Shown here in pieces: positions 5,657 to 33,637 of a stretch of DNA of 64,000 nucleotides. The position numbers and the translations under genes were made by a program. Source of the stretch: Nitrosophilus kaiyonis. GTDB lineage: Bacteria; Campylobacterota; Campylobacteria; Campylobacterales; Nitratiruptoraceae. The first letter of the stretch is position 1, and every line of letters begins with the position of its first letter. The notes under the pieces were generated by a model. The model did not search any database. It saw only the letters and a list, made by a program, of their open reading frames with translations, and was not told the origin of the DNA. Where the stretch lies: contig NZ_AP025696.1 in the NCBI RefSeq assembly GCF_027943725.1, positions 248,001-312,000 of the forward strand, given 5' to 3'.

Positions 5657-5658
5657 TA

Positions 5659-16195: not shown

Positions 16196-17125
16196 ATGCT
16201 AAAAAAAGGATGGTTTTTAATTCTTATTCCCATCCTTTTTATATCATGTTCAAATAAACTTCCAAATCTTCCTAAAAATATAGAAAATAAAAAAATACTT
16301 AATGTTCCTTATGTTTCTCAAAAAGAGTATTTTTGTGGACCAGCTTCGGTTTTAATGATATTAAAATATTGGCATAAAAAAGGAGATATTAAAGATATTC
16401 CAAAATATGATGAAATTATAAAAAGGCTCTATGTTCCTTCTAAAAAAGGGGCTTATCAGATTGAGATAAAATCAGCTATAAGAGATTATAATCTTTTATA
16501 TTTTGAAAAAAAAACCAATATTGATGAAATATTAAAAGCAGTAGATAAAAATATTCCTGTTTTAGTTCTTTTAAATCTTGCCTTTGAAAACTACCCAATG
16601 TGGCACTATGCAGTGGTAAGTGGATATGATTTAAGAAAAAGAGAGATTTATCTGCATTCTAGAAAAAAATATGAAGTTTTAAGTTTTTACAATTTTTATA
16701 ATCTTCATAAAAAAGCTAATTTTTGGACACTTTTTATAGTACCAAATGATTTTGATTTGGATTTTATCTCAAAAAAAGATTTTTTAAGAACTGCAGTAGA
16801 GCTTGAAAATGCAAAAAAATACGCTCTTGCAATCAAAGCATATCTTAATTTTTTAAAAAAATATCCTAATGATAAAGATCTACTATTTGGCCTAGCAAAC
16901 TGCTATTTTCTATCTAAAAAGTATAAAAAAGCAAAAAATATTTATCTAAAAATTATTAATATCGAAAATGACCCTTTAGTTTATAATAACCTTGCACTAA
17001 CATATTTAAATCTAAGAGAATGCAACAATGCAAAAGAAGCAATTTTTAAAGCAATGAATTTAGATAAAAAAAATTCAAAAATATATAAAAGTACTTTAGA
17101 AGAGATTTTAAAAAAATGTAGATAA
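16196..17125 (+). CDS. PA2778-family C39-like cysteine peptidase lipoprotein with TPRs
   Basis: A 309-aa lipoprotein: lipobox LFISC with Cys18, then a C39-like papain-fold domain (about 33-190) with YVSQKEYFCGPASVLMI carrying the likely catalytic Cys47 and MWHYAVVSGYD carrying His137, then two to three TPR units (about 195-305). It is expected to be membrane-anchored and to face the periplasm. It is coupled to the PA2779-family gene. This is the second C39-like enzyme within 15 kb, but it has a different architecture from the FapD-like one. The TAA stop forms the first three bases of the left island boundary repeat. Confidence 0.85.
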   Translation: MLKKGWFLILIPILFISCSNKLPNLPKNIENKKILNVPYVSQKEYFCGPASVLMILKYWHKKGDIKDIPKYDEIIKRLYVPSKKGAYQIEIKSAIRDYNLLYFEKKTNIDEILKAVDKNIPVLVLLNLAFENYPMWHYAVVSGYDLRKREIYLHSRKKYEVLSFYNFYNLHKKANFWTLFIVPNDFDLDFISKKDFLRTAVELENAKKYALAIKAYLNFLKKYPNDKDLLFGLANCYFLSKKYKKAKNIYLKIINIENDPLVYNNLALTYLNLRECNNAKEAIFKAMNLDKKNSKIYKSTLEEILKKCR

Positions 17126-17151
17126 TTGGTGGAGGTGTCGGGAATCGAACC
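17123..17151. other. attL, left island boundary
   Basis: A 29-bp copy of the ssrA 3' end (acceptor stem and T-arm, minus strand), identical to 33260-33288. It begins with the TAA stop of the PA2778-family gene, so before integration that gene and ssrA ended tail to tail with almost no gap. Past the repeat the tmRNA sequence stops abruptly. Confidence 0.9.
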
Positions 17152-17279: not shown

Positions 17280-17302
17280 TGGGTAGCAATAGGGTAGCAA
17301 AA
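17280..17302. repeat. Left 23-bp internal repeat, probable integrase arm sites
   Basis: Two copies of GGGTAGCAA 11 bp apart form a 23-bp sequence repeated perfectly at 33171-33193, close to the right boundary. Paired short direct repeats on both sides of a core att site are typical arm-type binding sites of tyrosine integrases. Confidence 0.7.
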
Positions 17303-17332: not shown

Positions 17333-18430
17333 TTGGCAAGAATAAAGAGCAAAAAATATACAGGAGTATACCTCAATAAGTTATCAAATGGAGATATTAG
17401 CTACTCATTCACTTATAAAGATGAAAACGGCAAAAAGAAATGGGTCAATGTGGGTAAAAAATCAGCTGGAATAACTGAGAAATATACTTACAACAAAAGA
17501 AATGAATATATCAATAAGGTTAAACTTGGAGAAGACCCACTAGAAGTGAAAAAATTACGCAAAAGTAAACTGTTGAATGAAGCATTTGAACTCTATATCA
17601 AAGATAGAGAACTGCATAATAAATCTTTGCATAATGAGATAGCTAGATATAATAACCACATTAAACCGACATTCGGATCGATTCCAATTGCATCTATAAC
17701 TCCAGAAGCTATACAAAAACTACAAAAGCAAAAAATAAATAGCGGATATAGCTATAAAACTGTAAATCATATAATCAACCTATTATCTACAATTATTAAC
17801 GTAGCTATAGAATATGGACTATATAAGGGAAATAATCCAGCTAAAAAAGTTAAACGCCTCAAAGTAGATAATGCAAGAGAACGCTTTTTAAATGTAGATG
17901 AAATTAAACTATTGCTTGATACAGTAAAAGGCAATCCTACTCTTTATCTTTTTTGCAATCTTGCATTATCAACAGGCGGACGACTTGAAACAATATTAGC
18001 AATTCAAAAAAAAGATATAGATTTAGATAATGGAACAATAAAGCTCAAAGACTTTAAAAACAATAGTACTTATACGGGTTTTATAAATAATATTCTACAC
18101 GCTTTGCTATCAGATTTGTTGCCAAAATTAAAAACAAACGATTATATATTGAGTAATAATAGCACACCTCTAACCTCTAGGCAGATTCAATCACCTCTTA
18201 AACCAATACTAGATCGACTCTTCAATCAAGGACTGCAGCCGAACGATAGAAAAAATAGAGTAGTTATTCATACTCTTCGCCACACTTTCGCAAGCCATTT
18301 AGCTATTAATGGAACGCCTATTTATACCATCCAAAAACTTATGAACCATAAAGATATAAATATGACTTTGAGATATGCTAAGCTTGCTCCAGATAGTGGA
18401 CGTAAAGCAGTAAATAATTTATACTCATAA
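17333..18430 (+). CDS. Tyrosine recombinase (site-specific integrase)
   Basis: A 365-aa integrase that recombines the att sites in ssrA. It has an N-terminal arm-binding-like domain (about 1-70), a SAM-like core-binding domain (80-175) and a catalytic domain (185-365) with Arg217 (STGGRLE), His313 and Arg316 (VIHTLRHTFA), His339 (MNHKD) and the nucleophile Tyr348 (LRYAKL). The start is TTG, with GGGGAC upstream; length suits the phage/island integrase class. It lies next to attL and reads inward. Its product probably binds the paired GGGTAGCAA repeats. Confidence 0.95.
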   Translation: MARIKSKKYTGVYLNKLSNGDISYSFTYKDENGKKKWVNVGKKSAGITEKYTYNKRNEYINKVKLGEDPLEVKKLRKSKLLNEAFELYIKDRELHNKSLHNEIARYNNHIKPTFGSIPIASITPEAIQKLQKQKINSGYSYKTVNHIINLLSTIINVAIEYGLYKGNNPAKKVKRLKVDNARERFLNVDEIKLLLDTVKGNPTLYLFCNLALSTGGRLETILAIQKKDIDLDNGTIKLKDFKNNSTYTGFINNILHALLSDLLPKLKTNDYILSNNSTPLTSRQIQSPLKPILDRLFNQGLQPNDRKNRVVIHTLRHTFASHLAINGTPIYTIQKLMNHKDINMTLRYAKLAPDSGRKAVNNLYS

Positions 18431-19238: not shown

Positions 19239-19266
19239 AGGACAAAAATTAAATAAGGGGTGAACA

Positions 19267-19548: not shown

Positions 19549-20386
19549 TCTACCTAATCCCATTAACCTATCCCAACCGCTGCATAACTCACTACCGAGA
19601 CAAAATTATACCAATAAAGAGGAAAAGCAAAGCTTTAATCTAAATGAATGGCATATTAATTTTAAAAAAGCATTGAAACAACAAGAAAAGACTGCAAGAA
19701 AATATATTGAATTGCCAGAAGGCTTTGTAAATACCACAAGCTTGATGTATGAGCTAATAGATAGGGATATTTGGAGACTACCAAGAGGAAAAGATGTTAA
19801 AGATAGATATTTGGGATATAGCAGTAAATATGAAAGCTTAACTATCTCATTATTTAAAGATGATGAGGTTAAGACAATTTGTATAAGAGAAGCAATAGAC
19901 AAAGAAGGAAATCCTATAAAATGGAAAACATATGGAAGTAAGAGATTTATTCCTTATAGGATTTTTGATGAAGATGACCTAAGCTTATTTGTAGGATATG
20001 GAATAGGAGAGTTTTTATTGCTGGAGCTGCTAGAATTAAATTATATGATACTTCAAAGCGATAGCATAGCTTTTAATCTTGCTATTAATCCATATACGCC
20101 AGATATTAAAGATAGATACATATTTGCACTGCTTGATAATGATGATAGCTGCAAGAAAACATTAGAGTATTTAAAAGAACATTTTAAAAGCTGCAAAGTG
20201 TATCCTATAGATTTTGAAAATATTTTGGGTAAAGAGTTGCCAAAAGGTTATGACTTTAGAGACTTTTGCAATCAAATAGCAAGAGAAATAAGAGAAAATG
20301 GCAATTTGCCTAATCCTACAAAAGTAAAAGAAGCAATTTTAAAATATTTATCAAATGAAATTAAATTAATTATAGGGGGAAAATAA
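19541..20386 (+). CDS. TOPRIM-like primase-associated protein
   Basis: A 281-aa protein. The C-terminal half looks like a TOPRIM-type domain: a glutamate in VGYGIGEFLLLELL followed by the paired aspartates of FALLDNDDSCKKTLEYL, the positions that hold metal in primases. The stretch PKGYDFRDFCNQIA near the end recurs in element-borne primases. With the CHC2-like protein upstream (8-bp overlap) and the DUF3987 protein downstream (1-bp overlap) it forms a replication module. Priming of island DNA is inferred. Confidence 0.65.
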   Translation: MNNLPNPINLSQPLHNSLPRQNYTNKEEKQSFNLNEWHINFKKALKQQEKTARKYIELPEGFVNTTSLMYELIDRDIWRLPRGKDVKDRYLGYSSKYESLTISLFKDDEVKTICIREAIDKEGNPIKWKTYGSKRFIPYRIFDEDDLSLFVGYGIGEFLLLELLELNYMILQSDSIAFNLAINPYTPDIKDRYIFALLDNDDSCKKTLEYLKEHFKSCKVYPIDFENILGKELPKGYDFRDFCNQIAREIRENGNLPNPTKVKEAILKYLSNEIKLIIGGK

Positions 20387-21945
20387 TGGCAGAAATAATT
20401 AAAAATACATTGAAAGAATTAGAGGCACAAGGGGCAAAAACCCTTGAGCCAACAAGCGAGATAACTAGTAAAAGTATAGCACAAAATGAAATGGATAAAA
20501 AGGTTGAAAAATATATTAGCAGTGTTATTGACCCCGAATTACTACCATATCCTATAAAGGAGTATTTTAAGGATGTAAGCCAACGATTATACCTACCCTT
20601 TGAAGAAGTAGCTACAGCAGGTTTTGCATTTTTGTCCAACCTAATAACAGATAAATTATGCTTAATACCAACTAATGATATATCATATAAAATAATTCCA
20701 AACCTTTGGGGATGTATCATAGCTGAAAAAGGAACGAGAAAAACACCGCTTTTTCAAGCTTTTTCTAATCCTATTTATCAAAAACATTTTAGATATGTTG
20801 AAATATTCAAAGAAGAGCAAGAACGCTATGAGATGAGAATAAAAGCCCTTGAAAGCAAAAGAAAAGCATTAATTAAAGCAGAAGCCGAGAATAATGATGA
20901 AAAGATTGAAGAGATGAAAGAAGCCATTCATAACCTCGAAAAAAAGACAAAGAATAAGCCAAAAAGCCGCTATCTTATATTAACAGATACCACTAAGGAA
21001 AAACTTACAGATGTATTATCTACAAACTCTCAAGGCATTTTGATTTTTCAAGATGAGATTACAAGAATTATTTATAGTTTTGTAAAAGACCCAGAGATGA
21101 GAAGCCTAATACTTGAAAGCTGGAGTGGTGCAAGCAAACATACTATAGGCAGAATAAACAGAGGCGATGTAAACATTGAAAAGCTTACTATTGGATTATT
21201 TGGGGGAATACAGCCAGAACTATATAAACAGCTTGTTTTAGCCCAAGAAGATAATATTGCAAGTGGTTTTAATGATAGGTTTCAGCTACTTTATGTGGTG
21301 AAAGATTTTAAATACCAAATAACCGATAAAGAGCAAAATGAAATTATCTATAATGAGTTTAAAAAGCTTGTAGATACTCTTATAGATATGAAACTGGAAA
21401 ACTATACAAAAGCAAAAGAATATCCATATATAGAAGACCTTTATTATCTGAAGCTAACAGATGAAGCAAAAAAGATATTTAAGTCCTTTATGGAAGGACT
21501 TAACAATGAACTATCTCAAGAATATCCGCTTTTAAGAGGATTTTTGAGCAAAAGTGATAAGCTTTTAGGCTCTTTGGCTTTGCTACTGCATACCATAGAA
21601 GCTATAAATGAACCAAAAGAAAATAACTATATTAATGCAGACATAATGAACAGAGCCATAGAGATAACCAAATTCTACATCTATCAAGCTATTGAGGCAT
21701 CACATATTGCTATCCATTTAGAAGAGAAAAAAGAGATTGATTTTGAAAAGAAACGCAATAGAGTTTTAAGCTATACATTGAAACAGAAACTGCCAATTAA
21801 GTTAAGAGATATTTATCGTCCTTTAAAAGGAGTTAGCAAAAAGGAAGCTTTACAAATACTTGAGCCTTATTACATAATTGAAAAAGATGGACAAAGCTTC
21901 ATAGTCAAAGAACAAAAGAATAATGCCTTTGAAGTAAAAAATTAG
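20386..21945 (+). CDS. DUF3987-type replication ATPase
   Basis: A 519-aa protein of the DUF3987 type, found in phages, plasmids and satellites beside primase genes. Seen: the N-terminal family stretch (LLPYPIKEYFKDVSQRLYLPFEEVATAGF), a Walker-A-like IIAEKGTRKTPLFQAF, a coiled coil at about 140-190 (KALIKAEAENNDEKIEEMKEA), a Walker-B-like LIFQDEI and a downstream KHTIGRINRG segment. It probably unwinds or loads at the element's origin. It shares one base with the preceding gene. A 30-bp palindrome and several GTTGAC words follow within 200 bp and could be its binding sites. Confidence 0.75.
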   Translation: MAEIIKNTLKELEAQGAKTLEPTSEITSKSIAQNEMDKKVEKYISSVIDPELLPYPIKEYFKDVSQRLYLPFEEVATAGFAFLSNLITDKLCLIPTNDISYKIIPNLWGCIIAEKGTRKTPLFQAFSNPIYQKHFRYVEIFKEEQERYEMRIKALESKRKALIKAEAENNDEKIEEMKEAIHNLEKKTKNKPKSRYLILTDTTKEKLTDVLSTNSQGILIFQDEITRIIYSFVKDPEMRSLILESWSGASKHTIGRINRGDVNIEKLTIGLFGGIQPELYKQLVLAQEDNIASGFNDRFQLLYVVKDFKYQITDKEQNEIIYNEFKKLVDTLIDMKLENYTKAKEYPYIEDLYYLKLTDEAKKIFKSFMEGLNNELSQEYPLLRGFLSKSDKLLGSLALLLHTIEAINEPKENNYINADIMNRAIEITKFYIYQAIEASHIAIHLEEKKEIDFEKKRNRVLSYTLKQKLPIKLRDIYRPLKGVSKKEALQILEPYYIIEKDGQSFIVKEQKNNAFEVKN

Positions 21946-21990
21946 GTTGACATCGACAAATATCATAATAATAAAGATTTTATGGAAGTT

Positions 21991-22020
21991 TTATTGTCAA
22001 CCTTTAAAGGTTGACAATAA
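21991..22020. repeat. 30-bp perfect palindrome
   Basis: Each half reads TTATTGTCAACCTTT, with no spacer. No T-run follows on either strand, so it is a poor intrinsic terminator; a dimer-binding operator or origin element is more likely. Confidence 0.85.
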
Positions 22021-22195
22021 GTTGACATATTGAAATGGTTAGAATCAATATGAAAAGTGTCAACTGTATCAATGAGTGTCAACCTTTTTATTACCGACAC
22101 TAAATGAACCATATTATGGGTATTTTATTAACCTTAGTCAGTGTCAGTAAAGAAGATTTTTTTTATTTTAACTCTACAATATCATTCAATATAAC

Positions 22196-22237
22196 AATTG
22201 TGGGAAACGTTCGGTTTTATGGACAAATCCCACAATT
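22196..22237. repeat. Inverted repeat AATTGTGGGA, 22-bp spacer
   Basis: Arms 22196-22205 and 22228-22237 are perfect complements. The spacer includes AACGTTCGG. It may be an operator or part of the origin region. Confidence 0.6.
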
Positions 22238-22384
22238 CCAACAAATCCTATGTTTCCTATAATTTTCACCTTATAGAAGTGTGGAAAATTTTAAATATAT
22301 ACCTTTTTATTACTAATACTTTAGATAATATATGAATAAACTTCAGGAAATACATTAGTCCAAATCATATGGCTTATAAAGAAG

Positions 22385-22717
22385 CTATTTATTTGACTTT
22401 TCTATAAACTCAATAATCTCTTTTGCCATTTTAAAACCATCAAATATTCCTTTTTTAAGTTCGCTATCTTTTAAATTTTTTAACTCTTTTTCTTTTTTAT
22501 CAATCTGTTCTAAAAATTCTTGTTTTATCTTTTTGATTTGTGTTAAATAGTATGCAGAAAGGTCTGATACCCATGTTAAAGATTTAACAACTCCTTTTTT
22601 ATATTTTTCGCTACCATAATTGATATGTTTTGCATATTTATATGGAGCAGTTTTTGAGAATGTTAAATCGCTTACTTTATCTAAAAACTCTTCAACAGTT
22701 TTTTTTCTTTTTTCCAT
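22385..22717 (-). CDS. Small coiled-coil protein of unknown function
   Basis: A 110-aa soluble, lysine- and glutamate-rich protein. After VEEFLDKVSDLTFSKTAPYKYAKHINYG comes a long helix (about 50-100) with heptad spacing (YYLTQIKKIKQEFLEQIDKKEKELKNLKDSE). I do not recognise the family. It lies 58 bp downstream of the SRAP gene on the same strand and may be co-transcribed with it. Opposite in direction to the replication genes, it begins the cargo half of the island. Confidence 0.6.
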   Translation of the reverse strand: MEKRKKTVEEFLDKVSDLTFSKTAPYKYAKHINYGSEKYKKGVVKSLTWVSDLSAYYLTQIKKIKQEFLEQIDKKEKELKNLKDSELKKGIFDGFKMAKEIIEFIEKSNK

Positions 22718-22775
22718 ACAATAATTATAAATGAATATGAAAAAATATATAAAAAATTAATATTTTGTTAACTTT

Positions 22776-23477
22776 TTAAAATAAAGATTTAACAGGCTCA
22801 ATACATTTTTCATCATTATTGTTTGGATTGTTGACATAATCTGAAACCATATATCCTTCCATTTTATTTGATGGATATGGTTTTAGAAGAGATTTAAGAT
22901 AATCATAATTTTTATAATCTGAATCAAGCCAAACATTTATATCATTAAAATCTAATATTGCTGGCATTCTATCATGCACTTCTTTTATAAGCTCATTTGC
23001 ATTAACTGTTATTATTGTAGAAGATATTATAACTTCATTGCTTTGTGGTACATTCCAGTAATCAAAAAGTCCTGCGAATGCAAATGTATCTGTATCTTTT
23101 GGTTTGTAATAGTAGGGAATCTTTTTTCTTGATTTTGGAATTCTTTGCCATTCATAAAATCCATTTGCTGGGATAATACATCTTTGTCTTTTAAATGGTT
23201 TTCTAAAGGCTGGTCTATCTTCAAGGTTTTCTGCTCTTGCGTTTATCATTTTATTTCCCATTGTGATATCATCAGTCCAAAACGGTATCAGTCCCCATCT
23301 TGTATATCTATAATGATTAAAACTCTCAAGTCCTAAAGCAGTTGCAATATCTGATTGGGGATAGATATTGTAGCTTGGGGTAAAATTTGCGCTTACATCA
23401 TCTTTTAAAGGTTTTCCTACTCTTTTTAGTTCTTCTATAATTGTTTTTGTGTTGTAAAAGGTATATCTGCCGCACAT
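22776..23477 (-). CDS. SRAP-family protein (HMCES/YedK-like abasic-site sensor)
   Basis: A 233-aa protein that covalently traps abasic sites in single-stranded DNA. The start at 23477 gives MCGRYTF, so that removal of Met exposes the catalytic Cys2, as in all SRAP proteins; the frame runs 8 codons further upstream, but starting there would bury the cysteine. Other active-site residues: Asn79 (MINARAEN), Glu109 (GFYEW) and His168 (EVHDRMPAI). Length is normal. SRAP genes are common on mobile elements, where they may protect replicating single-stranded DNA of the element or the host. Confidence 0.93.
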   Translation of the reverse strand: MCGRYTFYNTKTIIEELKRVGKPLKDDVSANFTPSYNIYPQSDIATALGLESFNHYRYTRWGLIPFWTDDITMGNKMINARAENLEDRPAFRKPFKRQRCIIPANGFYEWQRIPKSRKKIPYYYKPKDTDTFAFAGLFDYWNVPQSNEVIISSTIITVNANELIKEVHDRMPAILDFNDINVWLDSDYKNYDYLKSLLKPYPSNKMEGYMVSDYVNNPNNNDEKCIEPVKSLF

Positions 23478-23600
23478 GGTACTCCACTTAAAATGAATCA
23501 AGATTTTTAATTATTTTTTTTATTTATTATTCTCTAAAATTTTCTCATTTTCAGATTGTAATGTTTTATTTAGATATTTTTCTATTTTTGACTATTTTTA

Positions 23601-23675
23601 ATTTTCTTTCACTTCTGCATTTCTTCATATATTCTGGTAAAGTATGAAATATTACTTATATTCTTAGCCATTAAT
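23601..23675 (-). pseudogene. Possible remnant of a metK 3' end
   Basis: On the minus strand this stretch resembles the last 80 bp of the metK at 24206-25687: AATTAATGGC then CCAGAATATATGAAGAAATG, against metK AATTGATGGC and CCAGAATATACAAAGAAACG, with frameshifts between. It lies just beyond the membrane-protein gene, so that gene is flanked by an intact and a decayed metK 3' end. Similarity was judged by eye and is modest. Confidence 0.4.
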
Positions 23676-23681
23676 TTTTTC

Positions 23682-24002
23682 TTAGTATATTTTAATTATG
23701 TCTGATGAGTCTTTCGTTTTGTAATTATCTGTATCATCATTGTCTTTTTCATTAGATAAAGCTTCAAAACAATAACCTAAAATCAATAAGGATATTGGAA
23801 ATAAAATAACAGCTAAAAATAAAAAACCCATAGCTTGTAATATCTGAAAATAAAATAAACTTGATATTAATGCAAATACTGATGAAATTGCAGTTAAAAA
23901 TAATGCTATACCTATCAATCCAAGAACTAATATTCTTAATGGCTTAATAATAATGAACAATAATATTATTATTAATATAATAAATTGATCCGTATCACTC
24001 AT
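23682..24002 (-). CDS. Small integral membrane protein, unknown function
   Basis: A 106-aa protein with two to three hydrophobic helices (about 7-27, 29-52 and 53-80) and a charged C-terminal tail with an acidic run (NEKDNDDTDNYKTKDSSD). I do not recognise a family. It lies between metK and a possible decayed metK 3' end, so it may be an inserted cassette. Small membrane proteins beside nucleic-acid enzymes on islands are sometimes toxic or defence effectors; nothing here shows that directly. Confidence 0.55.
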   Translation of the reverse strand: MSDTDQFIILIIILLFIIIKPLRILVLGLIGIALFLTAISSVFALISSLFYFQILQAMGFLFLAVILFPISLLILGYCFEALSNEKDNDDTDNYKTKDSSDIIKIY

Positions 24003-24205
24003 AATAATCTTCCTATAGAGAGTATTAAATAAACTGTGTTAACCACTAAAAACCCTTTGAAATTCATCTTGTATATTTTTGCAAAATTTCACTGAAAATA
24101 TACAAAGCTTAGGATAAATTTCGCTCCAATTTCTGATTTTTGTATTACTCCATTTTAAATGTTACTTATTATTTATCTTTCTTATTCGGAAAATTATTTT
24201 CTTAT

Positions 24206-25687
24206 CTATCTTTTTTTTGATTTTTCTATCTCCTTCATCCGTTTCTTTGTATATTCTGGCGATTGATGAAAGGTAACACCTGCCATCAATTCCGCATATA
24301 CATCTGGATATTCCCTTTCTAAGTCGTCTAGTGACTTCAATTCTGTCTTATACTCTCTTAATTGCTCTAACTTTTCCAAAAACTCATCATCAAATATCTC
24401 CCATGGAAATTTGGGATTTCCCACTTGTCCAAACTTTGCAGTCTCAATATATTTTACTTTCTTTGGATCATCTAAATGAAACTTTTTAATTATTCCTTCT
24501 GGAGACATATCTATATTATCTAAAATAAACTCTTCTATTCTTTTTCTATCTACACTCTCTGTTCCAAATGTATAAAGAGTAAAAGAGATTGGCTGAGATA
24601 CTCCAATAGCATATGATAATTGAACTTCTGCTCTTTTTGCCAGTCCTGCTTTTACAATATGTTTTGCTATCCATCTTGCCATATACATTGCACTTCTATC
24701 AACTTTTGTATAATCTTTACCGCTTTGAGCGCCTCCACCTATTCTTGCAGCTCCCCCATAACTATCTACAATAAGTTTTCTTCCTGTTAATCCGCAATCA
24801 TAAAGCGGTGAATGCTTAATATAACTTCCTGCAGGATTTATAAATATTTTTGCCTTTTTTAAATCATATTTATTAAATATTCCAGATTCAACTATTATTT
24901 TTTCAATAGCTGGTTTATTGATTTCTTTAAACAGTGTTGGAATTGATACTACAATTGCATCTATTCCTGTAACTTCTCCAGTTTGACTATCCTGCACAAC
25001 TGTAACTTGTGTTTTTATATCAATACCAAATATTCTATATCTTTTATCTTTTCTATCCAGCTCATAAAAATATTTAGCAAGGCTTCTTGCTAAATATATA
25101 GAAACTGGCAAATACTCAGTATCTTCATTATCTTCAGCATATCCAAACATGATGCCTTGATCTCCTGCTCCAATTGCCCCACCTCCTTTTTCTATACCAA
25201 CTGAAATCCTATATTCCTCTTCACTTTTGCGCAGATAATAAAAAGGATCATACATCTCTTCATTTGCATATACAGGTTTTTTATAACCAGAGGATTCATT
25301 GTATGGCTCACTTTTAGCTAAAGCTCTTTTCCACTTATCAACACCTTCTGCAATCTCAGGACTTTGTGGCCTAAGATTTATCTCTACATCTATATAAGGA
25401 AGCTTTAAAGAATCTTCTTTGGGAAAAGGATAATCTTCTGAATAACCAATTTGTCGTATTGTATTAATTACAATTTTTTTTATTTCATCATCTGATAAAG
25501 TTATACTAGAATTTATTTCTCCTCCTAGAATTACTTTGTTTCCAGCAATCATAGTCTCACATGCCACTCTGCTGTTTTTATCTTTTGATAGATATGCATC
25601 AACAATAGCATCAGAAATAATATCTGCTACTTTATCTGAATGTCCAGGACTTACACTTTCGCTTGTAAATAAAATTTTATCGGCCAT
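24206..25687 (-). CDS. metK: S-adenosylmethionine synthetase with a large insertion, island-borne
   Basis: A 493-aa enzyme making AdoMet from methionine and ATP, about 100 residues longer than usual (about 385-400). Motifs: FTSESVSPGHSDKVAD (Ser where most have Pro), GAGDQGIMFGYA, DIKTQVTVVQD, and a Campylobacter-type NPAGSYIKHSPLYDCGLTGRK with GGGAQSGKDYTKVDRS. About 50 extra residues (about 118-170, including MYDPFYYLRKSEEEYR) sit before GAGDQG, and the C-terminus is extended (EYTKKRMKEIEKSKKR). The start at 25687 is preceded by AAAGGA. It is divergent from an adenine methylase gene, its possible consumer. Whether it is the cell's only MetK cannot be seen here. Confidence 0.9.
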   Translation of the reverse strand: MADKILFTSESVSPGHSDKVADIISDAIVDAYLSKDKNSRVACETMIAGNKVILGGEINSSITLSDDEIKKIVINTIRQIGYSEDYPFPKEDSLKLPYIDVEINLRPQSPEIAEGVDKWKRALAKSEPYNESSGYKKPVYANEEMYDPFYYLRKSEEEYRISVGIEKGGGAIGAGDQGIMFGYAEDNEDTEYLPVSIYLARSLAKYFYELDRKDKRYRIFGIDIKTQVTVVQDSQTGEVTGIDAIVVSIPTLFKEINKPAIEKIIVESGIFNKYDLKKAKIFINPAGSYIKHSPLYDCGLTGRKLIVDSYGGAARIGGGAQSGKDYTKVDRSAMYMARWIAKHIVKAGLAKRAEVQLSYAIGVSQPISFTLYTFGTESVDRKRIEEFILDNIDMSPEGIIKKFHLDDPKKVKYIETAKFGQVGNPKFPWEIFDDEFLEKLEQLREYKTELKSLDDLEREYPDVYAELMAGVTFHQSPEYTKKRMKEIEKSKKR

Positions 25688-25716
25688 TTTTTTTCCTTTC
25701 ATATTTATTTTGAAAT

Positions 25717-25754
25717 ATTATAGGAGATATTTTAATTTTAAAGTTTGATATAAT
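25717..25754. promoter_or_regulatory. Divergent -10 boxes for metK and the methylase
   Basis: TATAAT occurs on the minus strand at 25717-25722 (about 30 bp before metK) and on the plus strand at 25749-25754 (about 35 bp before the methylase ATG). The 26-bp gap means a protein bound there could control both genes. Confidence 0.55.
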
Positions 25755-25788
25755 TATGAATACATTATGTATTTAAATAAAGGCTAAC

Positions 25789-27453
25789 ATGAAAAGTTTA
25801 TATGATATAGCTTTATTATTAAAAAAATATCTAGGGTCTAGCTTACATGCTCTTTTATATACATTAGAGCTTGCAATAATAAAAAAGTATTTGCCCCAAA
25901 TTATTGATGATTTAAAAAAAGAAAAAGATAAAAAGAAGCTATCAGTAATATTAAATAAAGGATATTATGAGTTAAATCTGCCTCATAAAATAACTGAGAT
26001 AGAAGAAAATTTTCCTATAGATAAAATAGTAAAATATTTAATAGATGCAAAAATAGATTTTAAAAATATACAAGAGTTTATAGAAAAATTTACAATTGAG
26101 AAAAAATCAAACGATATTTACAAATATTCTACTCCTATTGAATTAAAAAAGTTAATGGTTGATATACTTGATATAAAAGAGAATGAAACTATTTATAATC
26201 CTGCATTTGGTATAGGAGGATTTTTTTTAAATATATCTAAATCAAATAAAAATGTTTCAATATATGGCGAAGATTATGAAGGTATAAATAGAGTAATTGC
26301 AGGTCTTACCGCTCAGCTGGCAGGTATTAAAAAATGCAATTTAAAAGTAGGCAATGTTATTACAAATTCATATTGGTGCAATAAAAATGAATGTAAAAAG
26401 TTTGATAAGGTAATATGCAACCCTCCAGTTAATGCTCCATTTTCTCCAGATATAATAAAAGATGATTTTAGATTTAGATACTTTGGTATTCCTTCACTAA
26501 ATGCTTCTGAATTTCTTTTTGTTGAGCATATTTTATCAACAATGAAGAAAAAAGCTGTTATTTTAATTAGAGAATCTTTACTGCAAAGAGGCTCTAAAGA
26601 AGCAAAAATAAGAACAAAAATAGCATATGAAGGATTAATTGAAGCAATTGTTCTACTTCCAAAAGGAATTATCCCTTATATAAAAGAGAATTTAGCATTA
26701 TGTATTTTGTCAAGAAATAATAAAGAGATATTTTTTGTAGATGCAAACAGACCATATTTTATTAAAAGAGTAGGAAAAAGAAATACAATTTATAGAATAG
26801 ATGAATTAAAAGATATTGTTTTAAACAGATATAAAAAAGATTTCACTTTAAATGTTCCTATTAATAAAATATCTCCGCTATCTTTATCTCCTTCATATTA
26901 TTTAAAAGATAAAAAAAGTGATGAAGAAATATATTTAAAAGATATAGCAGATTCAATATATAGAGTCCAAAGAGTTTCAAATTATAAAAAAGATTTTTTA
27001 AAATATTGTGAAATTGGTTTAAAAGATATTCCTAAATATAACTATATCATAGAATGCAACAATATTAGAAAAGGAGATAAAAAGAAGGTATTAAAATTTG
27101 CATTGAAAAAAAATGATATTTTAATTCCTTTAAGAAAAGGGGCAAATGTTATAGGGATTGTAGGTAAAACAGATAAATTATTGATTCCAAATTCTGGAAT
27201 TATGGTTATAAGGTTAAAAAATATATATGATGCTTATGGTTTGTATCTGTATCTGCAATCAGAAAAAGGGAAAAAAGAGCTTCAAAAACTGTATGATGAA
27301 GCTCCAAATAAAGCATTAAATAAAGATCTGCTAGAGACTCTGATTATTCCAAAATATATATTTACCAATGCAAAAGAGAAGTTTGAGAAAATAAAAAGAT
27401 ACCAAGAAAAAATAGAGATACTGAAAAAGCAAATAAATTTATGTCTGAATTGA
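25789..27453 (+). CDS. N6-adenine DNA methyltransferase with fused specificity-like domain
   Basis: A 554-aa HsdM-like protein. The helical N-terminus (1-110) is followed by the AdoMet-binding motif YNPAFGIGGFFLNI (usually DPACGTGGFL), YGEDYEGINRVIAGLTAQLAGI, and motif IV CNPPVNAPF (211-214), where the family normally has NPPF or NPPY. The C-terminal third (about 375-554) resembles a type I S-subunit half: EIYLKDIADSIYRVQRVS, LKKNDILIPLRKG and a final coiled coil. It would thus carry its own target recognition. No nuclease is adjacent except the helicase downstream. The NPPV motif may weaken or alter activity. It is divergent from metK. Confidence 0.78.
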   Translation: MKSLYDIALLLKKYLGSSLHALLYTLELAIIKKYLPQIIDDLKKEKDKKKLSVILNKGYYELNLPHKITEIEENFPIDKIVKYLIDAKIDFKNIQEFIEKFTIEKKSNDIYKYSTPIELKKLMVDILDIKENETIYNPAFGIGGFFLNISKSNKNVSIYGEDYEGINRVIAGLTAQLAGIKKCNLKVGNVITNSYWCNKNECKKFDKVICNPPVNAPFSPDIIKDDFRFRYFGIPSLNASEFLFVEHILSTMKKKAVILIRESLLQRGSKEAKIRTKIAYEGLIEAIVLLPKGIIPYIKENLALCILSRNNKEIFFVDANRPYFIKRVGKRNTIYRIDELKDIVLNRYKKDFTLNVPINKISPLSLSPSYYLKDKKSDEEIYLKDIADSIYRVQRVSNYKKDFLKYCEIGLKDIPKYNYIIECNNIRKGDKKKVLKFALKKNDILIPLRKGANVIGIVGKTDKLLIPNSGIMVIRLKNIYDAYGLYLYLQSEKGKKELQKLYDEAPNKALNKDLLETLIIPKYIFTNAKEKFEKIKRYQEKIEILKKQINLCLN

Positions 27454-27786
27454 ATTAAATTTATTAATATTATTAGTAATCATAAAATTCAATAAATTTT
27501 ATTGCTTGTTGAAAAGCTGTATAATCTTAATATCATAAGTCTTTTTTTATGATGTGCTTTATTGTTCGATTCCGCCCATGGCTTCCACTCTCATAATTCT
27601 ATAAAATCGAATCTTCAAAGCAATTTCAAAAGAGATTTAAGGTTTGACTTCAAATAAAAAAATAACCCATAGGTAACCAAAATTTTATTTTATTTTGAAT
27701 CATTATATATTTTATTTTACTTCTAATTCAAAATATAAAAGCTGAAAAATATTCGGCATTAACAATTGGTAAGAATTATAATGAAA
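27454..27786. other. Noncoding stretch after the methylase gene
   Basis: 333 bp between convergent genes. About the first 110 bp recur in decayed form at 31893-32016, including TATAAT (27520-27525) and a hairpin at 27532-27553 (7-bp stem ATCATAA/TTATGAT, 8-base loop). Next comes a stretch like the 3' end of a tRNA: GTTCGATTCC at 27564-27573 and CCA at 27585-27587. The remainder shows nothing recognisable. Confidence 0.5.
27532..27553 (+). terminator. Hairpin after the methylase gene
   Basis: Stem 27532-27538 / 27547-27553 with a T-rich loop, about 80 bp after the stop. A matching hairpin is kept at 31979-32000 after the decayed second copy. A TATAAT box just upstream leaves open that it belongs to a short transcript of its own. 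Confidence 0.45.
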
Positions 27787-30753
27787 TCAAGAGTTTTTAG
27801 TAATTTTTATTACTTCGAAAATTTCTTCCAAATATTTTGCTTCTTTGTAATTAATTTTTTCTCTAAGCTTTAAAGGTATTTTAAAAAAATCAGATCTTTT
27901 TATAGGTTTTTTCTCAATAAAAATATCTATCATTTCATCAGATAAAAGCGTACTTTTATCTAATGATAATTCTTTTGTAATTTTTTCTTTTAAATCAAAC
28001 AATTTCAATTTTAATTCATTATCTATGGATTTTTGATTTAAATTACTTCTTGTTTCATTACTGGTTACATTGTTTTTAACAGTTTTTTTATTTTTCTTTT
28101 TTTGAAATTGTTCTGGAATGGATGTAGTATATGTACACCTATGACTTTTAAAATTTTCACAGCCATAAAAAATCTCTCCGTGTCTGTTTTTTCTTTTAAC
28201 TAATATTCCACCGCATTTAGGACATAATAAAACTTTTTCATTATTTAAATACTTATTTTCTACTTCATAATGGTCATTTAGAAACTCTTTAATAAAAATA
28301 GATGGGTTATTCTTGTTAGTAACAATATGTACTTCATCTTTTGCCCTTGTGAGAGCCACATAAAAAAGTCTTCTCTCTTCTGCAAACGGATAATCTTCTA
28401 TATTAGACATTGCAAGTGTAACAATTGGGTCATTGCTTATCATAGAAGGAAAACCTAATATATCATGAATAACTCTATTTATAATTACAATATCTGACTC
28501 TAAACCTTTAGCTTTATGAACAGACATTGGTCTGAATTTGATATGTTGGTATTTTTTTTTAATGTCAGATAAATTAACATTATAAGAGTATTTATTTCTT
28601 CCTAATATCAAACAGCTTTTATATTTATCAATTTCAATATTATCTAAAATAAACGATATATTGCTTTCTGAATTTTCGATATCATCAAACCACCAGATAA
28701 AAATTTTGGGTTTATCTGTTTTTTTTATTGTTTGAATGTTCTTTTTTATTTGATAAGGATTTTTTTGTATAAATTTTTGTGCTACCTCATTAATTTTATT
28801 ATTGAATCGAAAAGTACAGTCTAAAGTGATTTTTTCAGTATTGCCAAAAAAGTCTAAAAAATTGTAAAAAATGGAAATATCACCTCCAGCATATCTATTT
28901 ATTGCTTGCCAATCATCTCCAACTGCTGTAAATATAGTGTCTGTCTTGTTTTTTAATGCTTTAACTAGTTTCGCTCTTGCTACAGAAATATCCTGAAATT
29001 CGTCAACAAGTATAGCTCTGTATGTTGATATGTATTTTCCAGATTCTACATACTCTACTGCCTTGTTAATCATATCCTCAAAATCTATAACATTTTCTCT
29101 TTTGTTTTTTTCTTCATACTGTTCCATTATAAGGAAGATTATTTTTATAAAAGCTTTGAGCCTATCATCGTTTTTTGCTCTTTTTTCCAATTCATTTTTC
29201 CCAATATGCGAAGATTTATAATGTGTTATGAAAGTCGCTATGTTTTTTGATAGTTCATTTACTAATCCTCTTTTATTGAGAGTTTTGAGTGCCTGTTTAA
29301 AGCTAATTGGTTTAAATTTTACATTGTAGTTTTTCAATTTATTATATAAGTTCTTTAGAAGCTGATTATATTTCTTTTCATAACTGTATGTTTCTATCAT
29401 AATAGTATTATATTTTTGGTGTATTTTTCTTTTCCATTCAATTCCTTTGATATATTTTTCTTTATCGATATAAGGGGCTGGATTATTATTTTCATCAATA
29501 CCAAAATGTTCTATATAAATATCATATTCAGGAAGATAGAAATCTGGTCTATATTGTCTATATTGTCTATTAGCAGTATTAAATTTATAAGAATATTCAT
29601 AAATGTATTTAATTTGATTAAGATAAAGAAAATTCGCTATTTCGCACTCTTCATAGCTTTTAACTTTTTCATTATTCAATGTAACGATATCATTATTTTT
29701 TAGATAGTTTTGATATTCATTTTCTGATTTAAATTCATATTTACTGATATAGTTTGCAAAAGGCCTATAAAAAAAGCTCATAAAATTTTTATAAAACCCA
29801 TTATTTGTTTTTAATAAATATTTAATAATTTCTTCAATTACTTTTGCTTTTAAAGAGTCATCTTCTGCCCATTTTGCAACTGAAGGTTTCACATCTTCAA
29901 CTTTAGTAATTATATTCATACCAAGTGAATGAAATGTAGAAATTGACATATTGTCCAAATTTAATCTTTTTTTCACTCTTTCTTTTAATTCTTCCGATGC
30001 TTTATTATTAAAAGCCATTACAAGTATTTCATTTGGTTTGAAATTATATTTTTGAATTAAATAGCCTATTTTTGCAACTATTACACTAGTTTTTCCAGAT
30101 CCTGCTCCAGCAATAACAAGGTTATTTTCTTCGTTTGTAATAACTGCTAATCTCTGATTCTTAGTTAAACGGTTTTTCTCTATAGAATCAAAGTATTTTT
30201 TATAAGTGATTAGTTCTTTATCTATGAAGTTTTTATTATGCTCTCTTCTATATCTTTCACTATTATGAACAATTTGAAATAAATTTTCAAAAATTGAACT
30301 ATTAGATAAAGATTTTGGTAGTTCATTTATGTGGTTTATCTCTGGCAATTTTTGTAATATTAATTTTTTTTTATCTTCTAGTTTTTTCTGTTGTAAGTAT
30401 TTATTATCTATTTCTTGAAATATTTGATTGAATAAATTTTTTGCTATATGAATATTTTCTTCAAGATATTTTTGAGATAAAACTGATGTCAGAGCATTAT
30501 ATAGTTTTCTCGCATCATCTTTTGCTAACCATTCAATCTTAATTATTCTTTCATTATTTAGCTCTATTTTTATTTCATTCCAAAAACCCCAGATGTTACC
30601 TATTGGAAATACTTTTCTTATTTCTTTTATAGGATATCTTTTAATACTTCCAGATTTAATAGGTACCATAGTAAGATAGTTATCATCTACAGATATTTTT
30701 GAATAACGAGTAAGTATTTTATTTACAATTCCTATTTGTAAAGTAAAATTCAT
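27787..30753 (-). CDS. Helicase-IV-type UvrD/Rep helicase with nuclease-like insert, zinc ribbon and HRDC domain
   Basis: A 988-aa superfamily 1 helicase. The N-terminal 1-190 resembles the helicase IV lead domain. Walker A is AGAGSGKTS (215-223) and Walker B LVDEFQD (584-588); later motifs are FRPMSVHKAKGLE and RRLFYVALTRAKDEV. The insert at 365-460 has E371, PDFYLP (Asp404) and IYIEHFG (Glu415), a PD-(D/E)XK-like pattern known from helicase IV proteins. After the core come a topoisomerase-type zinc ribbon (CPKCGG...YGCENF...C) and an HRDC-like helical domain at the C-terminus. It may process DNA ends or act in defence beside the methylase. It is the only gene on this strand between the methylase and its decayed copy, apart from the lipoprotein. 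Confidence 0.85.
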   Translation of the reverse strand: MNFTLQIGIVNKILTRYSKISVDDNYLTMVPIKSGSIKRYPIKEIRKVFPIGNIWGFWNEIKIELNNERIIKIEWLAKDDARKLYNALTSVLSQKYLEENIHIAKNLFNQIFQEIDNKYLQQKKLEDKKKLILQKLPEINHINELPKSLSNSSIFENLFQIVHNSERYRREHNKNFIDKELITYKKYFDSIEKNRLTKNQRLAVITNEENNLVIAGAGSGKTSVIVAKIGYLIQKYNFKPNEILVMAFNNKASEELKERVKKRLNLDNMSISTFHSLGMNIITKVEDVKPSVAKWAEDDSLKAKVIEEIIKYLLKTNNGFYKNFMSFFYRPFANYISKYEFKSENEYQNYLKNNDIVTLNNEKVKSYEECEIANFLYLNQIKYIYEYSYKFNTANRQYRQYRPDFYLPEYDIYIEHFGIDENNNPAPYIDKEKYIKGIEWKRKIHQKYNTIMIETYSYEKKYNQLLKNLYNKLKNYNVKFKPISFKQALKTLNKRGLVNELSKNIATFITHYKSSHIGKNELEKRAKNDDRLKAFIKIIFLIMEQYEEKNKRENVIDFEDMINKAVEYVESGKYISTYRAILVDEFQDISVARAKLVKALKNKTDTIFTAVGDDWQAINRYAGGDISIFYNFLDFFGNTEKITLDCTFRFNNKINEVAQKFIQKNPYQIKKNIQTIKKTDKPKIFIWWFDDIENSESNISFILDNIEIDKYKSCLILGRNKYSYNVNLSDIKKKYQHIKFRPMSVHKAKGLESDIVIINRVIHDILGFPSMISNDPIVTLAMSNIEDYPFAEERRLFYVALTRAKDEVHIVTNKNNPSIFIKEFLNDHYEVENKYLNNEKVLLCPKCGGILVKRKNRHGEIFYGCENFKSHRCTYTTSIPEQFQKKKNKKTVKNNVTSNETRSNLNQKSIDNELKLKLFDLKEKITKELSLDKSTLLSDEMIDIFIEKKPIKRSDFFKIPLKLREKINYKEAKYLEEIFEVIKITKNS

Positions 30754-31091
30754 GAAAAAGCCATTTAGATTAAATGTTTATACAATTTAGGCTGAATATT
30801 CTTTTTCATTCTTTATCTCTTTTTGTTTAATAAAGATTTATATTGGCATATTTTCTGTCGATATTATTTATTATTTGACCTTAGTATTTTTTACTCTTTA
30901 ATACCTGCTTTTTTAAATAATTTGACAATATTATGATAGCAGTTTTCTATAATTAAAAACAAAACTATTGCTTAATTATTAAAATCAAACAATTTTGTTT
31001 AATAAAGATAACTTTTTATAAATATTAGAATTAAATATTCAAATCCTGCCTCTATTAAAATACAAAGATACAAAACACAATTGAACTAATC
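30754..31091. other. Noncoding stretch between helicase and lipoprotein genes
   Basis: 338 bp, extremely AT-rich, no gene. A 17-bp direct repeat TTTTGTTTAATAAAGAT occurs at 30821-30837 and 30993-31009. The helicase promoter should be here, but no box is convincing. Confidence 0.5.
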
Positions 31092-31535
31092 CTAAAACTG
31101 AATTTTATATTTATTACCTTTGTTATCTTTTCCTACTCCATAACCATGACCTGTCCATGGATCTACTACATAAACAATATCAATTATTATTCCTTCTCCT
31201 GAAACTATAGCGCTCCCAAATTGTTTTCCTGGTTGATTAAATGAAAAACCTTGTGCTATTGCCCATGCATATTGATTGTCATTAGATGCAGCACTTCCAT
31301 TAATCAATGCATAATTATAATTAGTATCGTTTATGGTAGAATATTCTCCTTTAAGTACTGTTCCATTTGACATCTTTAAAGTAATTTCACCATGTCCAAT
31401 TCCATAGTCTTTAAAAGAAGCAGTCAAAACATTACCTGTATTTAAATTATATAATCTTGCATGTCTTGTACATCCATTAAAAATTATTAATATGATTATT
31501 GAAAATAAAAAAAGTAATATTTTATTAGAAAACAT
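31092..31535 (-). CDS. Putative lipoprotein of unknown function
   Basis: A 147-aa protein with a hydrophobic leader and a lipobox-like IIFNGC at about residue 22. The mature part is glycine- and tyrosine-rich (SFKDYGIGHGEITLKMSNGTVLKGEYSTI...SGEGIIIDIVYVVDPWTGHGYGVGKDNKG) and looks like a small beta-sandwich. Similar short lipoproteins occur scattered in Proteobacteria without known function. It lies upstream of the helicase on the same strand, 338 bp apart. Membrane-anchored, side unknown. Confidence 0.65.
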   Translation of the reverse strand: MFSNKILLFLFSIIILIIFNGCTRHARLYNLNTGNVLTASFKDYGIGHGEITLKMSNGTVLKGEYSTINDTNYNYALINGSAASNDNQYAWAIAQGFSFNQPGKQFGSAIVSGEGIIIDIVYVVDPWTGHGYGVGKDNKGNKYKIQF

Positions 31536-31682
31536 AACAATTACCTTTGATATCTTTTTAAAAAATATTTTCTAATTTAATATTACCTAATTTTTTACCT
31601 CTATACAAATCTATTCCTCATATGAAATGATATTAAGCACAATTTTTTGTTTATTAGTGTTTAAAAACTTTTTAAAACTAAC

Positions 31683-32000
31683 TTAAAAGATGCAAAAATT
31701 AATGAAGATATATATTTAAAAGATATAGTAAATTCAATATATAGAGTCTAAAGAGTTTCAAATTATAAAAAAGTGTTTTTAAAATATTATAAAATTGATT
31801 TAAAAGATATTTTTCAATGTGATTGAGAAAATAAAAAGATATCAAGAAAAAATAGAGATATTAAAAAATCAAATAAATTTGTATCTAAATTGAATTAAAT
31901 CCAATTTACTAATAACATCCTCTCATCATAAAGCTAAATAAGTTTTATTGCTTATTGAATGGTTGTATAATCTTTAATATCATAAGCCTTTTTTTATGAT
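31683..32000 (+). pseudogene. Decayed second copy of the methylase 3' end and downstream sequence
   Basis: Bases 31683-31812 align to the methylase gene at about 26898-27030 (shared TATATTTAAAAGATATAG, AGAGTTTCAAATTATAAAA). A codon CAA has become TAA, and about 350 bp are then missing. Bases 31823-31893 align to the last 70 bp of the gene, up to TGAATTAAAT, and 31893-32016 continue into the same downstream sequence with its TATAAT and hairpin. It is clearly a dead copy, lacking the first 1.1 kb of the gene. Together with the intact gene it brackets the helicase and lipoprotein genes. Confidence 0.8.
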
Positions 32001-32136
32001 GTCGCTTTATTGTTCAATTTATTTGATAAATTTTATGTAAATACTTTTCAATCATCTAATTTTTCAAGTCATTTTACTATTTTTTGACTTAAGTAATTAA
32101 AATTTTGTATTATAAAAAAAACATAAGGAATAACTT

Positions 32137-32874
32137 ATGGATTTTTCTTCTATACTCAAAAAAATATCTCTTTTTGCAATAATATTTGTAGCTAGTAACT
32201 CATTAGCCGATTTTATTGATGATGGAATAAAAGCATTAGAAGCTAGGGACTACAATAATGCTTTTAAATTTTTTAAAAAAGCATGCGATATTAGAGATGG
32301 ATTAGGATGCAATGAAATTGGGTACATGTATTTTAAAGGCAAAGGAGTTAAAAGAGATTCTTTTAAAGCTGTTGAATTTTATAAAAAAGCATGTAATCTT
32401 AAAAATGGACGAGGATGCAACAATCTTGGAGTCATGTATGAGCTAGGCAAAGGAGTCAAAAAAAATCCCTTTAAAGCTGCAAAATTTTATCATAAGGCTT
32501 GTAATTTGAAAAATGGAGGAGGATGCTATGGACTTGGACGTTTATATGAAATAGGTAGAGGGGTTAAAAGAAACCCTTTTAAAGCCGTTGAACTTTTTGA
32601 AAAAGCATGTAAACTTTGGAATGGACAAGGATGTAGTAATCTTGGTGTTATGTATTTAGATGGGAAAGTAGTAAAAAAAGACCCTTTTAAAGCTGTGAAA
32701 CTTTTCCAAAAAGCTTGTAATCTTTGGAATGGAGAAGGATGCTATAATCTTGCTCTTATGTATGAATTTGGTATAGGAGTAAAGAAAGATATTTCGAAAG
32801 CTATTATGTACTACGGAAATGCATGTGATTTAAAAGTAGAAGAAGGCTGTGAAAATTATGCAAGATTAAAATAG
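32137..32874 (+). CDS. Sel1-repeat cysteine-rich protein, Hcp-like
   Basis: A 245-aa secreted protein with a signal peptide (ending VASNSLA) and six Sel1-type repeats of 36 aa (for example FKAVEFYKKACNLKNGRGCNNLGVMYELGKGVKK). Each repeat carries two cysteines eight positions apart (AC-x7-C), the alpha/alpha disulfide pattern of Helicobacter cysteine-rich proteins. These are exported and some bind penicillin or act on host cells; in a free-living relative the role is unknown. It is the last gene before the right end of the island. AAGGAA precedes the ATG. Confidence 0.88.
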   Translation: MDFSSILKKISLFAIIFVASNSLADFIDDGIKALEARDYNNAFKFFKKACDIRDGLGCNEIGYMYFKGKGVKRDSFKAVEFYKKACNLKNGRGCNNLGVMYELGKGVKKNPFKAAKFYHKACNLKNGGGCYGLGRLYEIGRGVKRNPFKAVELFEKACKLWNGQGCSNLGVMYLDGKVVKKDPFKAVKLFQKACNLWNGEGCYNLALMYEFGIGVKKDISKAIMYYGNACDLKVEEGCENYARLK

Positions 32875-33259
32875 TTTAATATTTGACATATCATCATTTT
32901 GGTTCCTTTTAATTAAAATTTTATAAAATTTTTAAATATATATCATTTTAGCGAAAAAAAAGTTGTTAGGAAGAAATATTAGTTATTTGTTCTGACAGAA
33001 ACAATATTTATTTTAATAATAAGTAGCAAATATAATCATAAGTTAGATTGTATTCCTTATGTCAATAAATAGTGTAATTAGTTCGTATCCCACTGCTATT
33101 ATTCAAACTTCATAAAAAAATACTATAATAAATACTATTTATGTAATGATATAACTTTAATTTCCAATAATGGGTAGCAATAGGGTAGCAAAACTACTTT
33201 ATTTATTTCCTTAAAAAGCCCTATTAAGTCCTATTTTATAGAAGATTTTTGAGATTTTT
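32875..33259. other. Noncoding right end of the island
   Basis: 385 bp without a gene. It contains the right arm-site repeat (33171-33193); otherwise AT-rich sequence with no hairpin or promoter I can support. Confidence 0.5.
33171..33193. repeat. Right 23-bp internal repeat, probable integrase arm sites
   Basis: Perfect copy of 17280-17302, two GGGTAGCAA words 11 bp apart, 67 bp inside the right boundary repeat and in the same orientation. Confidence 0.7.
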
Positions 33260-33288
33260 TAATTGGTGGAGGTGTCGGGAATCGAACC
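33260..33288. other. attR, right island boundary
   Basis: A 29-bp repeat identical to 17123-17151; from 33264 on it forms the 3' end of the complete tmRNA gene. The island end thus restores the gene it entered. Confidence 0.9.
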
Positions 33289-33637
33289 CGAGTCCAGAAA
33301 CAACCGATATTAGGCCTCTACATGCTTAGTAGCGCTGATTAATCTCGATTTACAAAGGCTCAGCGCCCAAAGCCTTTGTAAATCCAGCCTAAAGGTGTCG
33401 ATAAGCAGCTAGGCAACTGCTTATCCAAGCCCTCTATTTTGTGACCCCGCAAAATCCTAACTCAGAGGGCAGAGTTAGGTGCGAGGGACCAAAATTCGTT
33501 AAACTTACGCAGCTACAGCGTAAGCTGGTCTATAATCTGTATTGTTTGCGTCTATTTTTTTGAGGAGTTTTTACGGCATTCCTCAAGCCGGCATGCAGCC
33601 TAATACCGACTGCTCCTGTCGAAGCCAAGTCACCCCC
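33264..33637 (-). ncRNA. ssrA: Transfer-messenger RNA (tmRNA)
   Basis: A 374-nt tmRNA that rescues stalled ribosomes. The 5' GGGGGUG (33637-33631) pairs with 3' CACCUCC to close the acceptor stem, followed by the encoded CCA. The tRNA-like T-arm reads GGTTCGATTCCCGA. The tag reading frame (33549-33505) encodes ANNTDYRPAYAVAA then TAA, close to the tags of Campylobacter and Helicobacter. Several stems for the pseudoknots are visible (for example AACTCTGCCCTCTGAGTT). It lies 22 bp after trpA, so its promoter should be inside or upstream of that gene. Confidence 0.97.

What the first reader, a model, noticed from the sequence alone, without database searches (positions are those of the whole stretch)
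26898..32016. Decayed copy of the methylase 3' end brackets the helicase and lipoprotein genes
About 130 bp of coding sequence, a 350-bp gap, the last 70 coding bp and 120 bp of downstream sequence, including a TATAAT and a hairpin, reappear at 31683-32016 in the same orientation. The 4.2 kb between the copies looks like an insertion that came with, or was made by, duplication of a gene 3' end. The same kind of 3'-end duplication may exist at metK.
Basis: seen in the sequence. Interest (0 to 1): 0.65.

Follow-up and report, generated by a model that had tools for sequence, protein, structure and literature searches.

The report
Fossil island junction behind duplicated methylase end
A broken copy of the end of a DNA-methylase gene lies 4 kb from the intact gene because both copies look like the ends of mobile gene islands that once stacked one behind the other, with a scrap of a tRNA gene still marking the old joint.

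Summary
26902-27030 and 27383-27571 recur at 31683-31811 and 31823-32019 (90% and 84%), far above shuffles. Copy 2 is a decaying pseudogene fragment: 13 of 13 changed codons in its first block are non-synonymous, one a stop.

Homology stops at 27571, inside a scrap of the tRNA-Phe gene's 3' end (27564-27587). That scrap is followed by about 100 bp resembling the DNA downstream of tRNA-Phe in own, G016, G007 and G009 (0 of 500 shuffles each). The block lies inside an ssrA (tmRNA) island (17123-33288) with a tyrosine integrase and a 29-bp att repeat. GTTCGATTC, the T-loop core, occurs three times in 64 kb: at the two ssrA ends and at 27564.

Best reading: the copies are the distal ends of two related islands integrated head-to-tail by site-specific recombination. 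The first kept metK-methylase, the second kept the helicase, and copy 2 is the second island's decayed end. Tandem accretion is a known process, so this is a decayed member of a known kind. The right-hand core lacks tRNA sequence, so the final step is inferred.

The parts
17123..17151 (-). distal att site of the island: 29-bp exact copy of the ssrA 3' end, ending in the T-loop
   Evidence: exact repeat of 33260-33288; sequence read
17280..17302 (+). integrase arm-type repeat GGGTAGCAAtaGGGTAGCAAA near the distal end
   Evidence: exact 23-bp repeat of 33171-33193; same repeat at both ends of the G001 island
17333..18430 (+). tyrosine integrase of the ssrA island
   Evidence: Pfam PF00589 E 3e-24; 88% identical protein in G001
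23575..23649 (-). possible decayed metK 3' end (weak)
   Evidence: 70% over 77 bp; 21 of 1000 DNA shuffles as good; protein score 47, 0 of 500 shuffles, but 45 elsewhere in the island
24206..25702 (-). metK, 498 aa; the genome also matches at two other metK loci
   Evidence: TIGR01034 above cut-off; own-genome matches at C1:229307 and C1:1617281
25789..27453 (+). intact N6-adenine DNA methylase, 554 aa (copy 1 at its 3' end)
   Evidence: PF02384 E 7e-37
26902..27571 (+). copy 1: methylase 3' part, downstream hairpin, up to the tRNA-Phe T-loop core
27564..27587 (+). fossil tRNA-Phe 3' end (T-loop to CCA), 21 of 24 bases as in the genome's tRNA-Phe gene
27588..27690 (+). fossil tRNA-proximal island arm with CATAGGTAACCAAAA
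   Evidence: resembles the DNA after tRNA-Phe in own L006, G016, G007, G009 (0 of 500 shuffles each); near-identical CTATAGGTAACCAAAA in G007
27787..30753 (-). UvrD/helicase IV-like helicase, 988 aa, cargo of the second unit
   Evidence: PF00580, NF008276 below cut-off; 5 of 398 genomes of the order at E<=1e-60, own included
31092..31535 (-). 147-aa protein with a lipoprotein-like start, no family match
31683..32019 (+). copy 2: decayed methylase 3' part plus hairpin, 345 bp lost inside, ending at GTTCAATT
33171..33193 (+). arm-type repeat at the ssrA-proximal end
33260..33288 (-). ssrA-proximal att site
33264..33637 (-). ssrA (tmRNA), the island's target gene
   Evidence: ARAGORN

Best explanation
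The two copies are the distal ends of two related genomic islands that were integrated head-to-tail by a tyrosine integrase crossing over in a tRNA T-loop core (GTTCRATT). Order read from the sequence: island A distal end (metK-methylase-hairpin) | tRNA-Phe T-loop core and 3' end | island B proximal arm - helicase - small protein - island B distal end (methylase 3' end-hairpin) | GTTCAATT. Shown: the repeat, its end at the core, the tRNA-Phe fragment, the arm, and the decay of copy 2. Inferred: that A and B were sister copies of one element (possibly a dimer) which then lost genes in a complementary way, metK-methylase kept in A and helicase kept in B, and that B's right end was joined to a non-tRNA site inside the ssrA island, because no tRNA sequence follows GTTCAATT. 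The block runs opposite to ssrA, so it is a passenger in the ssrA island and not a plain tandem insertion at ssrA.
For: The repeat ends at 27571, inside the tRNA-Phe match that starts at 27564; beyond the core the copies share nothing (343 of 500 shuffles as good). 27564-27644 matches tRNA-Phe plus downstream DNA, 79%, E 2e-12, next-best window hit 2e-5. Arm similarity: own L006, G016, G007, G009 0 of 500 shuffles each; none of 13 control tRNA-Phe flanks better than 37 of 500 (groups assigned after reading). Cargo after the arm is on the minus strand in G007, G009 and here. GTTCGATTC occurs 3 times in the window, at both ssrA cores and 27564; 0 of 200 shuffles reach 3. A sister integrase (88%) in G001 sits in an island at tRNA-Pro, its att repeat also ending in the T-loop, with a right-end-like sequence outside the att (68% over 108 columns), as tandem accretion would leave. 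Decay is similar for copy 2 (86-90%) and the tRNA scrap (87.5%). The methylase and the helicase are found in different genomes.
Against: No tRNA sequence follows GTTCAATT at the end of copy 2, so the right-hand att site is only 8 bp. No left-hand arm of island A was found: the best other arm-like score in the window is 21, around 50551-50776, outside the island. The tRNA-Phe repeats in G016 and G001 start in the anticodon arm, not the T-loop. The G001 tRNA-Phe flank shows no arm similarity (407 of 500), and the ssrA-proximal arm only weakly resembles the fossil (54 of 500). No intact A or B element was found. The possible metK 3' remnant is not explained.
Confidence: 0.6

Rival explanations
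1. Homologous single crossover: a circular element carrying metK-methylase-attP-helicase integrated into a resident methylase gene, giving two methylase copies around the circle; the second then decayed to its 3' end.
For: The order methylase-core-arm-helicase is also what an opened circle with an attP would show. It needs no integrase action at 32019.
Against: It predicts a second near-complete methylase and metK on the right; only the 3' end is left, and DNA 5' of copy 2 (31536-31682) shows only weak AT-rich-type matches to the metK-methylase unit, on the opposite strand for the best ones. It does not explain why resident and incoming DNA stop being alike exactly at the T-loop core unless the resident was itself an island end.
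Confidence: 0.17
2. Plain segmental duplication of the methylase 3' end, with the cargo and the tRNA scrap inserted between the copies later.
For: Direct repeat with decay in one copy.
Against: The downstream edge of the repeat falls inside the tRNA-Phe core, a coincidence under this reading.
Confidence: 0.13
3. One reading: an insertion mechanism that copies a gene 3' end as part of its own chemistry.
For: Possible second instance at metK.
Against: The repeat does not stop at the gene end and its limit is an att core; no transposase or IS among the ORFs between the copies; the metK case is weak.
Confidence: 0.05
4. The tRNA-Phe scrap and what follows are just native DNA downstream of a lost tRNA-Phe gene, not an island arm.
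For: Own tRNA-Phe is followed by similar DNA with ordinary chromosomal genes beyond.
Against: 13 other tRNA-Phe flanks in the family, some from the same genus, lack it; G016 shows a second tRNA-Phe 3' end 3 kb away, the mark of an island.
Confidence: 0.05

Closest known systems
Tandem accretion and CIMEs (cis-mobilizable elements) of streptococcal ICEs/IMEs (PMC7563491, passages seen)
   Same: Integrase-less, decayed units between att sites, arising by integration of one element next to another plus deletion
   Different: Here the right-hand att site is reduced to 8 bp, the internal core is from another gene (tRNA-Phe) than the outer one (ssrA), and the order is inverted; that paper reports no tandems of same-family elements among its own
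ssrA genomic islands of Dehalococcoides (PMC3146451, passages seen)
   Different: Those carry a serine recombinase; here a tyrosine integrase
Composite island CGI48 of Shewanella putrefaciens (PMC8978831, abstract and outline seen)
   Same: An island with one target site captured inside an island with another
   Different: CGI48 and its inner GI21 still excise; here the inner block is a fossil
T-loop island with 88% identical integrase in G001
   Same: Same integrase clade, same arm repeats, att repeat ending in the T-loop
   Different: Target is tRNA-Pro, cargo is different

Membership tests
[quoted passage not shown]
   29 bp exact, 17123-17151 and 33260-33288
ssrA-integrated genomic island with tyrosine integrase | Integrase gene next to one att site | tested here: met
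   17333-18430, PF00589
ssrA-integrated genomic island with tyrosine integrase | Excision and transfer | not testable with these tools
   needs experiment
Tandem-accreted / CIME-like unit (27564-32019) | Att core at the left boundary | tested here: met
   tRNA-Phe T-loop to CCA at 27564-27587 and island arm
Tandem-accreted / CIME-like unit (27564-32019) | Att core at the right boundary | tested here: inconclusive
   only GTTCAATT; no tRNA sequence beyond
Tandem-accreted / CIME-like unit (27564-32019) | No recombination or transfer genes of its own | tested here: met
   the two ORFs taken as genes match helicase families or nothing
Tandem-accreted / CIME-like unit (27564-32019) | Mobilised with a neighbouring element | not testable with these tools
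   needs experiment
Transposon or insertion sequence | Transposase gene inside the insertion | tested here: not met

The most novel reading that the evidence does not exclude
A family of islands in these bacteria uses only the near-universal T-loop core, so that one integrase clade can use ssrA, tRNA-Pro, tRNA-Phe and even non-tRNA GTTCRATT sites; tandem sister copies then lose genes in a complementary way, turning a dimer into two integrase-less cargo units carried inside another island.
Probability: 0.2. Interest if true: 0.5.

Novelty: new member of a known kind. Interest (0 to 1): 0.36.

Why it matters
A foreign tRNA scrap and a decayed gene end inside an island record earlier rounds of integration at another site. 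Such fossils show how islands gather cargo (here metK-methylase and a helicase) and how integrase-less units may form. It also warns that 'gene 3'-end duplication' around cargo can be an island end in disguise.

Tried and rejected
Rejected: transposon insertion (no transposase; repeat limit is an att core); background similarity (0 of 200 shuffles). Looked for an att core and arm to the right of copy 2 and found none, and for a second arm on the left of metK, none above background. Looked for helicase or small-protein remnants left of metK: only AT-rich-type matches, the kind that this BLAST setting also gives elsewhere. The metK remnant was tested three ways and left as weak.

Led nowhere: methylase scan of genome contigs (none confirmed), helicase scan of viral contigs (none confirmed), plasmid searches (only distant homologues, all below 60% identity), metK search of the order (1 of 398 at E<=1e-75, the window's own). 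Helicase neighbourhoods in G271, G084, G098 and G313 show no link to this methylase by ORF reading.

Literature: four full-text searches; passages of PMC3146451, PMC9723563 and PMC7563491 and the abstract and outline of PMC8978831 were seen; other listed papers only as search listings. I make no claim that this composite is absent from print.

Full report
Observation. The repeat is as described. BLAST of the window against itself gives 26902-27030 with 31683-31811 (90%) and 27383-27571 with 31823-32019 (84%), both direct (ungapped families D2, D3 and D10). The local alignment score is 126 against a maximum of 39.5 in 200 dinucleotide shuffles. Copy 2 lacks 345 bp (27038-27382).

Copy 2 is decaying. 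In the first block 13 codons differ, all 13 non-synonymous, one CAA to TAA; by codon position 7, 7 and 2 differences. In the last 22 codons 6 differ, 4 of them synonymous. Both coding blocks show more G/C in copy 1 changed to A/T in copy 2 (10 and 6 sites) than the reverse (4 and 1); the non-coding tail shows the opposite (4 against 9). The different pattern of the two coding blocks is not explained.

The frame: an ssrA island. [quoted passage not shown]), and GGGTAGCAAtaGGGTAGCAAA repeats lie near both ends (17280-17302, 33171-33193). A tyrosine integrase (17333-18430) lies at the far end. Of 22 family genomes, own and G001 hold this integrase at E<=1e-20; G001's is 88% identical. In G001 the island lies at tRNA-Pro: its att repeat ends in the T-loop, as the ssrA one does, and the arm repeats are kept. 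Outside G001's att lies a sequence resembling an island right end (68% over 108 columns), read here as a trace of tandem accretion. G001's length equals that listed for one Nitratiruptor strain in PMC9723563 (1,877,931 bp, passage seen); from recall it is SB155-2, and the name is my inference.

The joint. From 27564 the window matches the tRNA-Phe gene of the same genome (L006) from the T-loop to CCA (21 of 24 bases) and some 60 bp of what follows it (79% over 82 columns, E 2e-12). The own-genome search with the tRNA-Phe region gave this place and the full gene, plus only weak AT-rich hits that lie beyond the tRNA part. The homology between copies 1 and 2 ends inside this core, and beyond it the copies are unrelated. 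GTTCGATTC occurs three times in the 64-kb window: 17142, 27564 and 33279, the two ssrA cores on the minus strand and the fossil on the plus strand; shuffles average 0.06 and none of 200 reaches three.

The arm. The 125 bases after the fossil CCA resemble the DNA after tRNA-Phe in own L006, G016, G007 and G009 (0 of 500 shuffles each), weakly that after tRNA-Arg in G015 (7 of 500), the G001 tRNA-Pro island (6 of 500) and the G016 distal copy (19 of 500), and not significantly the ssrA-proximal end (54 of 500) or G001 tRNA-Phe (407 of 500). Of 13 control tRNA-Phe flanks the best reached 37 of 500. With the window as query, BLAST found the match reaching beyond the tRNA in own L006, G016, G009 and G007, while G004, G010 and G002 matched over about 26 to 32 bases only. 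G007 also shares CTATAGGTAACCAAAA, against CATAGGTAACCAAAA here. In G007, G009 and the window a minus-strand gene follows the arm. tRNA-Phe is a used island site in the family: G016 and G001 hold a second partial tRNA-Phe 3' end about 3 to 3.5 kb away, though there the repeat starts in the anticodon arm.

Reading. The sequence order is island A end | tRNA-Phe core | island B arm, helicase, small protein, island B end | GTTCAATT. That is what tandem integration leaves. A and B share their distal end and may be sister copies that lost genes in a complementary way; this is inference. GTTCAATT followed by non-tRNA sequence suggests that the pair sat at a secondary site inside the ssrA island.

Cargo. 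The methylase (PF02384) has strong relatives in G007 (52%) and G013 (56%, truncated) next to ordinary chromosomal genes, and in 31 of 398 genomes of the order at E<=1e-30, own included. The helicase matches 5 of 398 at E<=1e-60, own included; the other four (G271, G084, G098, G313) are not among the methylase-bearing genomes. The two genes therefore travel separately, which fits independent cargo. PADLOC profiles match the helicase to GajB- and RT-associated helicases, and NCBIfam helicase IV below its cut-off; no partner gene of such systems was seen between the copies.

Known context. Tandem accretion, decayed integrase-less units (CIMEs) and composite islands are described (PMC7563491 and PMC3146451 passages; PMC8978831 abstract). 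This is a decayed member of that kind, with a tRNA-Phe joint inside an ssrA island as its distinctive point.

Noticed in passing
3384-5105 and 5635-7356: Perfect 1,722-bp tandem duplication of a repeat-rich secreted-looking protein gene, with a further 98% copy pair at 2588-3021/5188-5621.
   Followed up: no
24206-25702: A 498-aa metK sits head-to-head with the methylase in the island; the genome matches at two further metK loci and no genome of 398 but its own matches at E<=1e-75. A private SAM supply for the methylase is a guess.
   Followed up: partly
23575-23649: Possible decayed metK 3' end; weak. If real, both flanks of the metK-methylase unit carry an outer remnant.
   Followed up: partly
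21991-22150: Perfect 30-bp palindrome and several GTTGACA-type repeats just after the DUF3987 gene; could be a replication origin of the island.
   Followed up: no
L149/L150 (G001:C1 about 1687600-1708200): The sister island at tRNA-Pro carries a relaxase-like ORF and a PAPS-reductase/ATPase pair that looks like a phosphorothioation (dnd-like) system, from reading ORFs only.
   Followed up: no
L107 (G001 tRNA-Phe), L106 (G016 tRNA-Phe): Small islets without an evident integrase ORF between two tRNA-Phe 3' ends: carbonic anhydrase plus a SulP-like permease in G001, small ORFs in G016 (names from reading ORFs).
   Followed up: partly
32137-32874: Sel1-repeat gene with four 108-bp direct repeats next to copy 2.
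   Followed up: no
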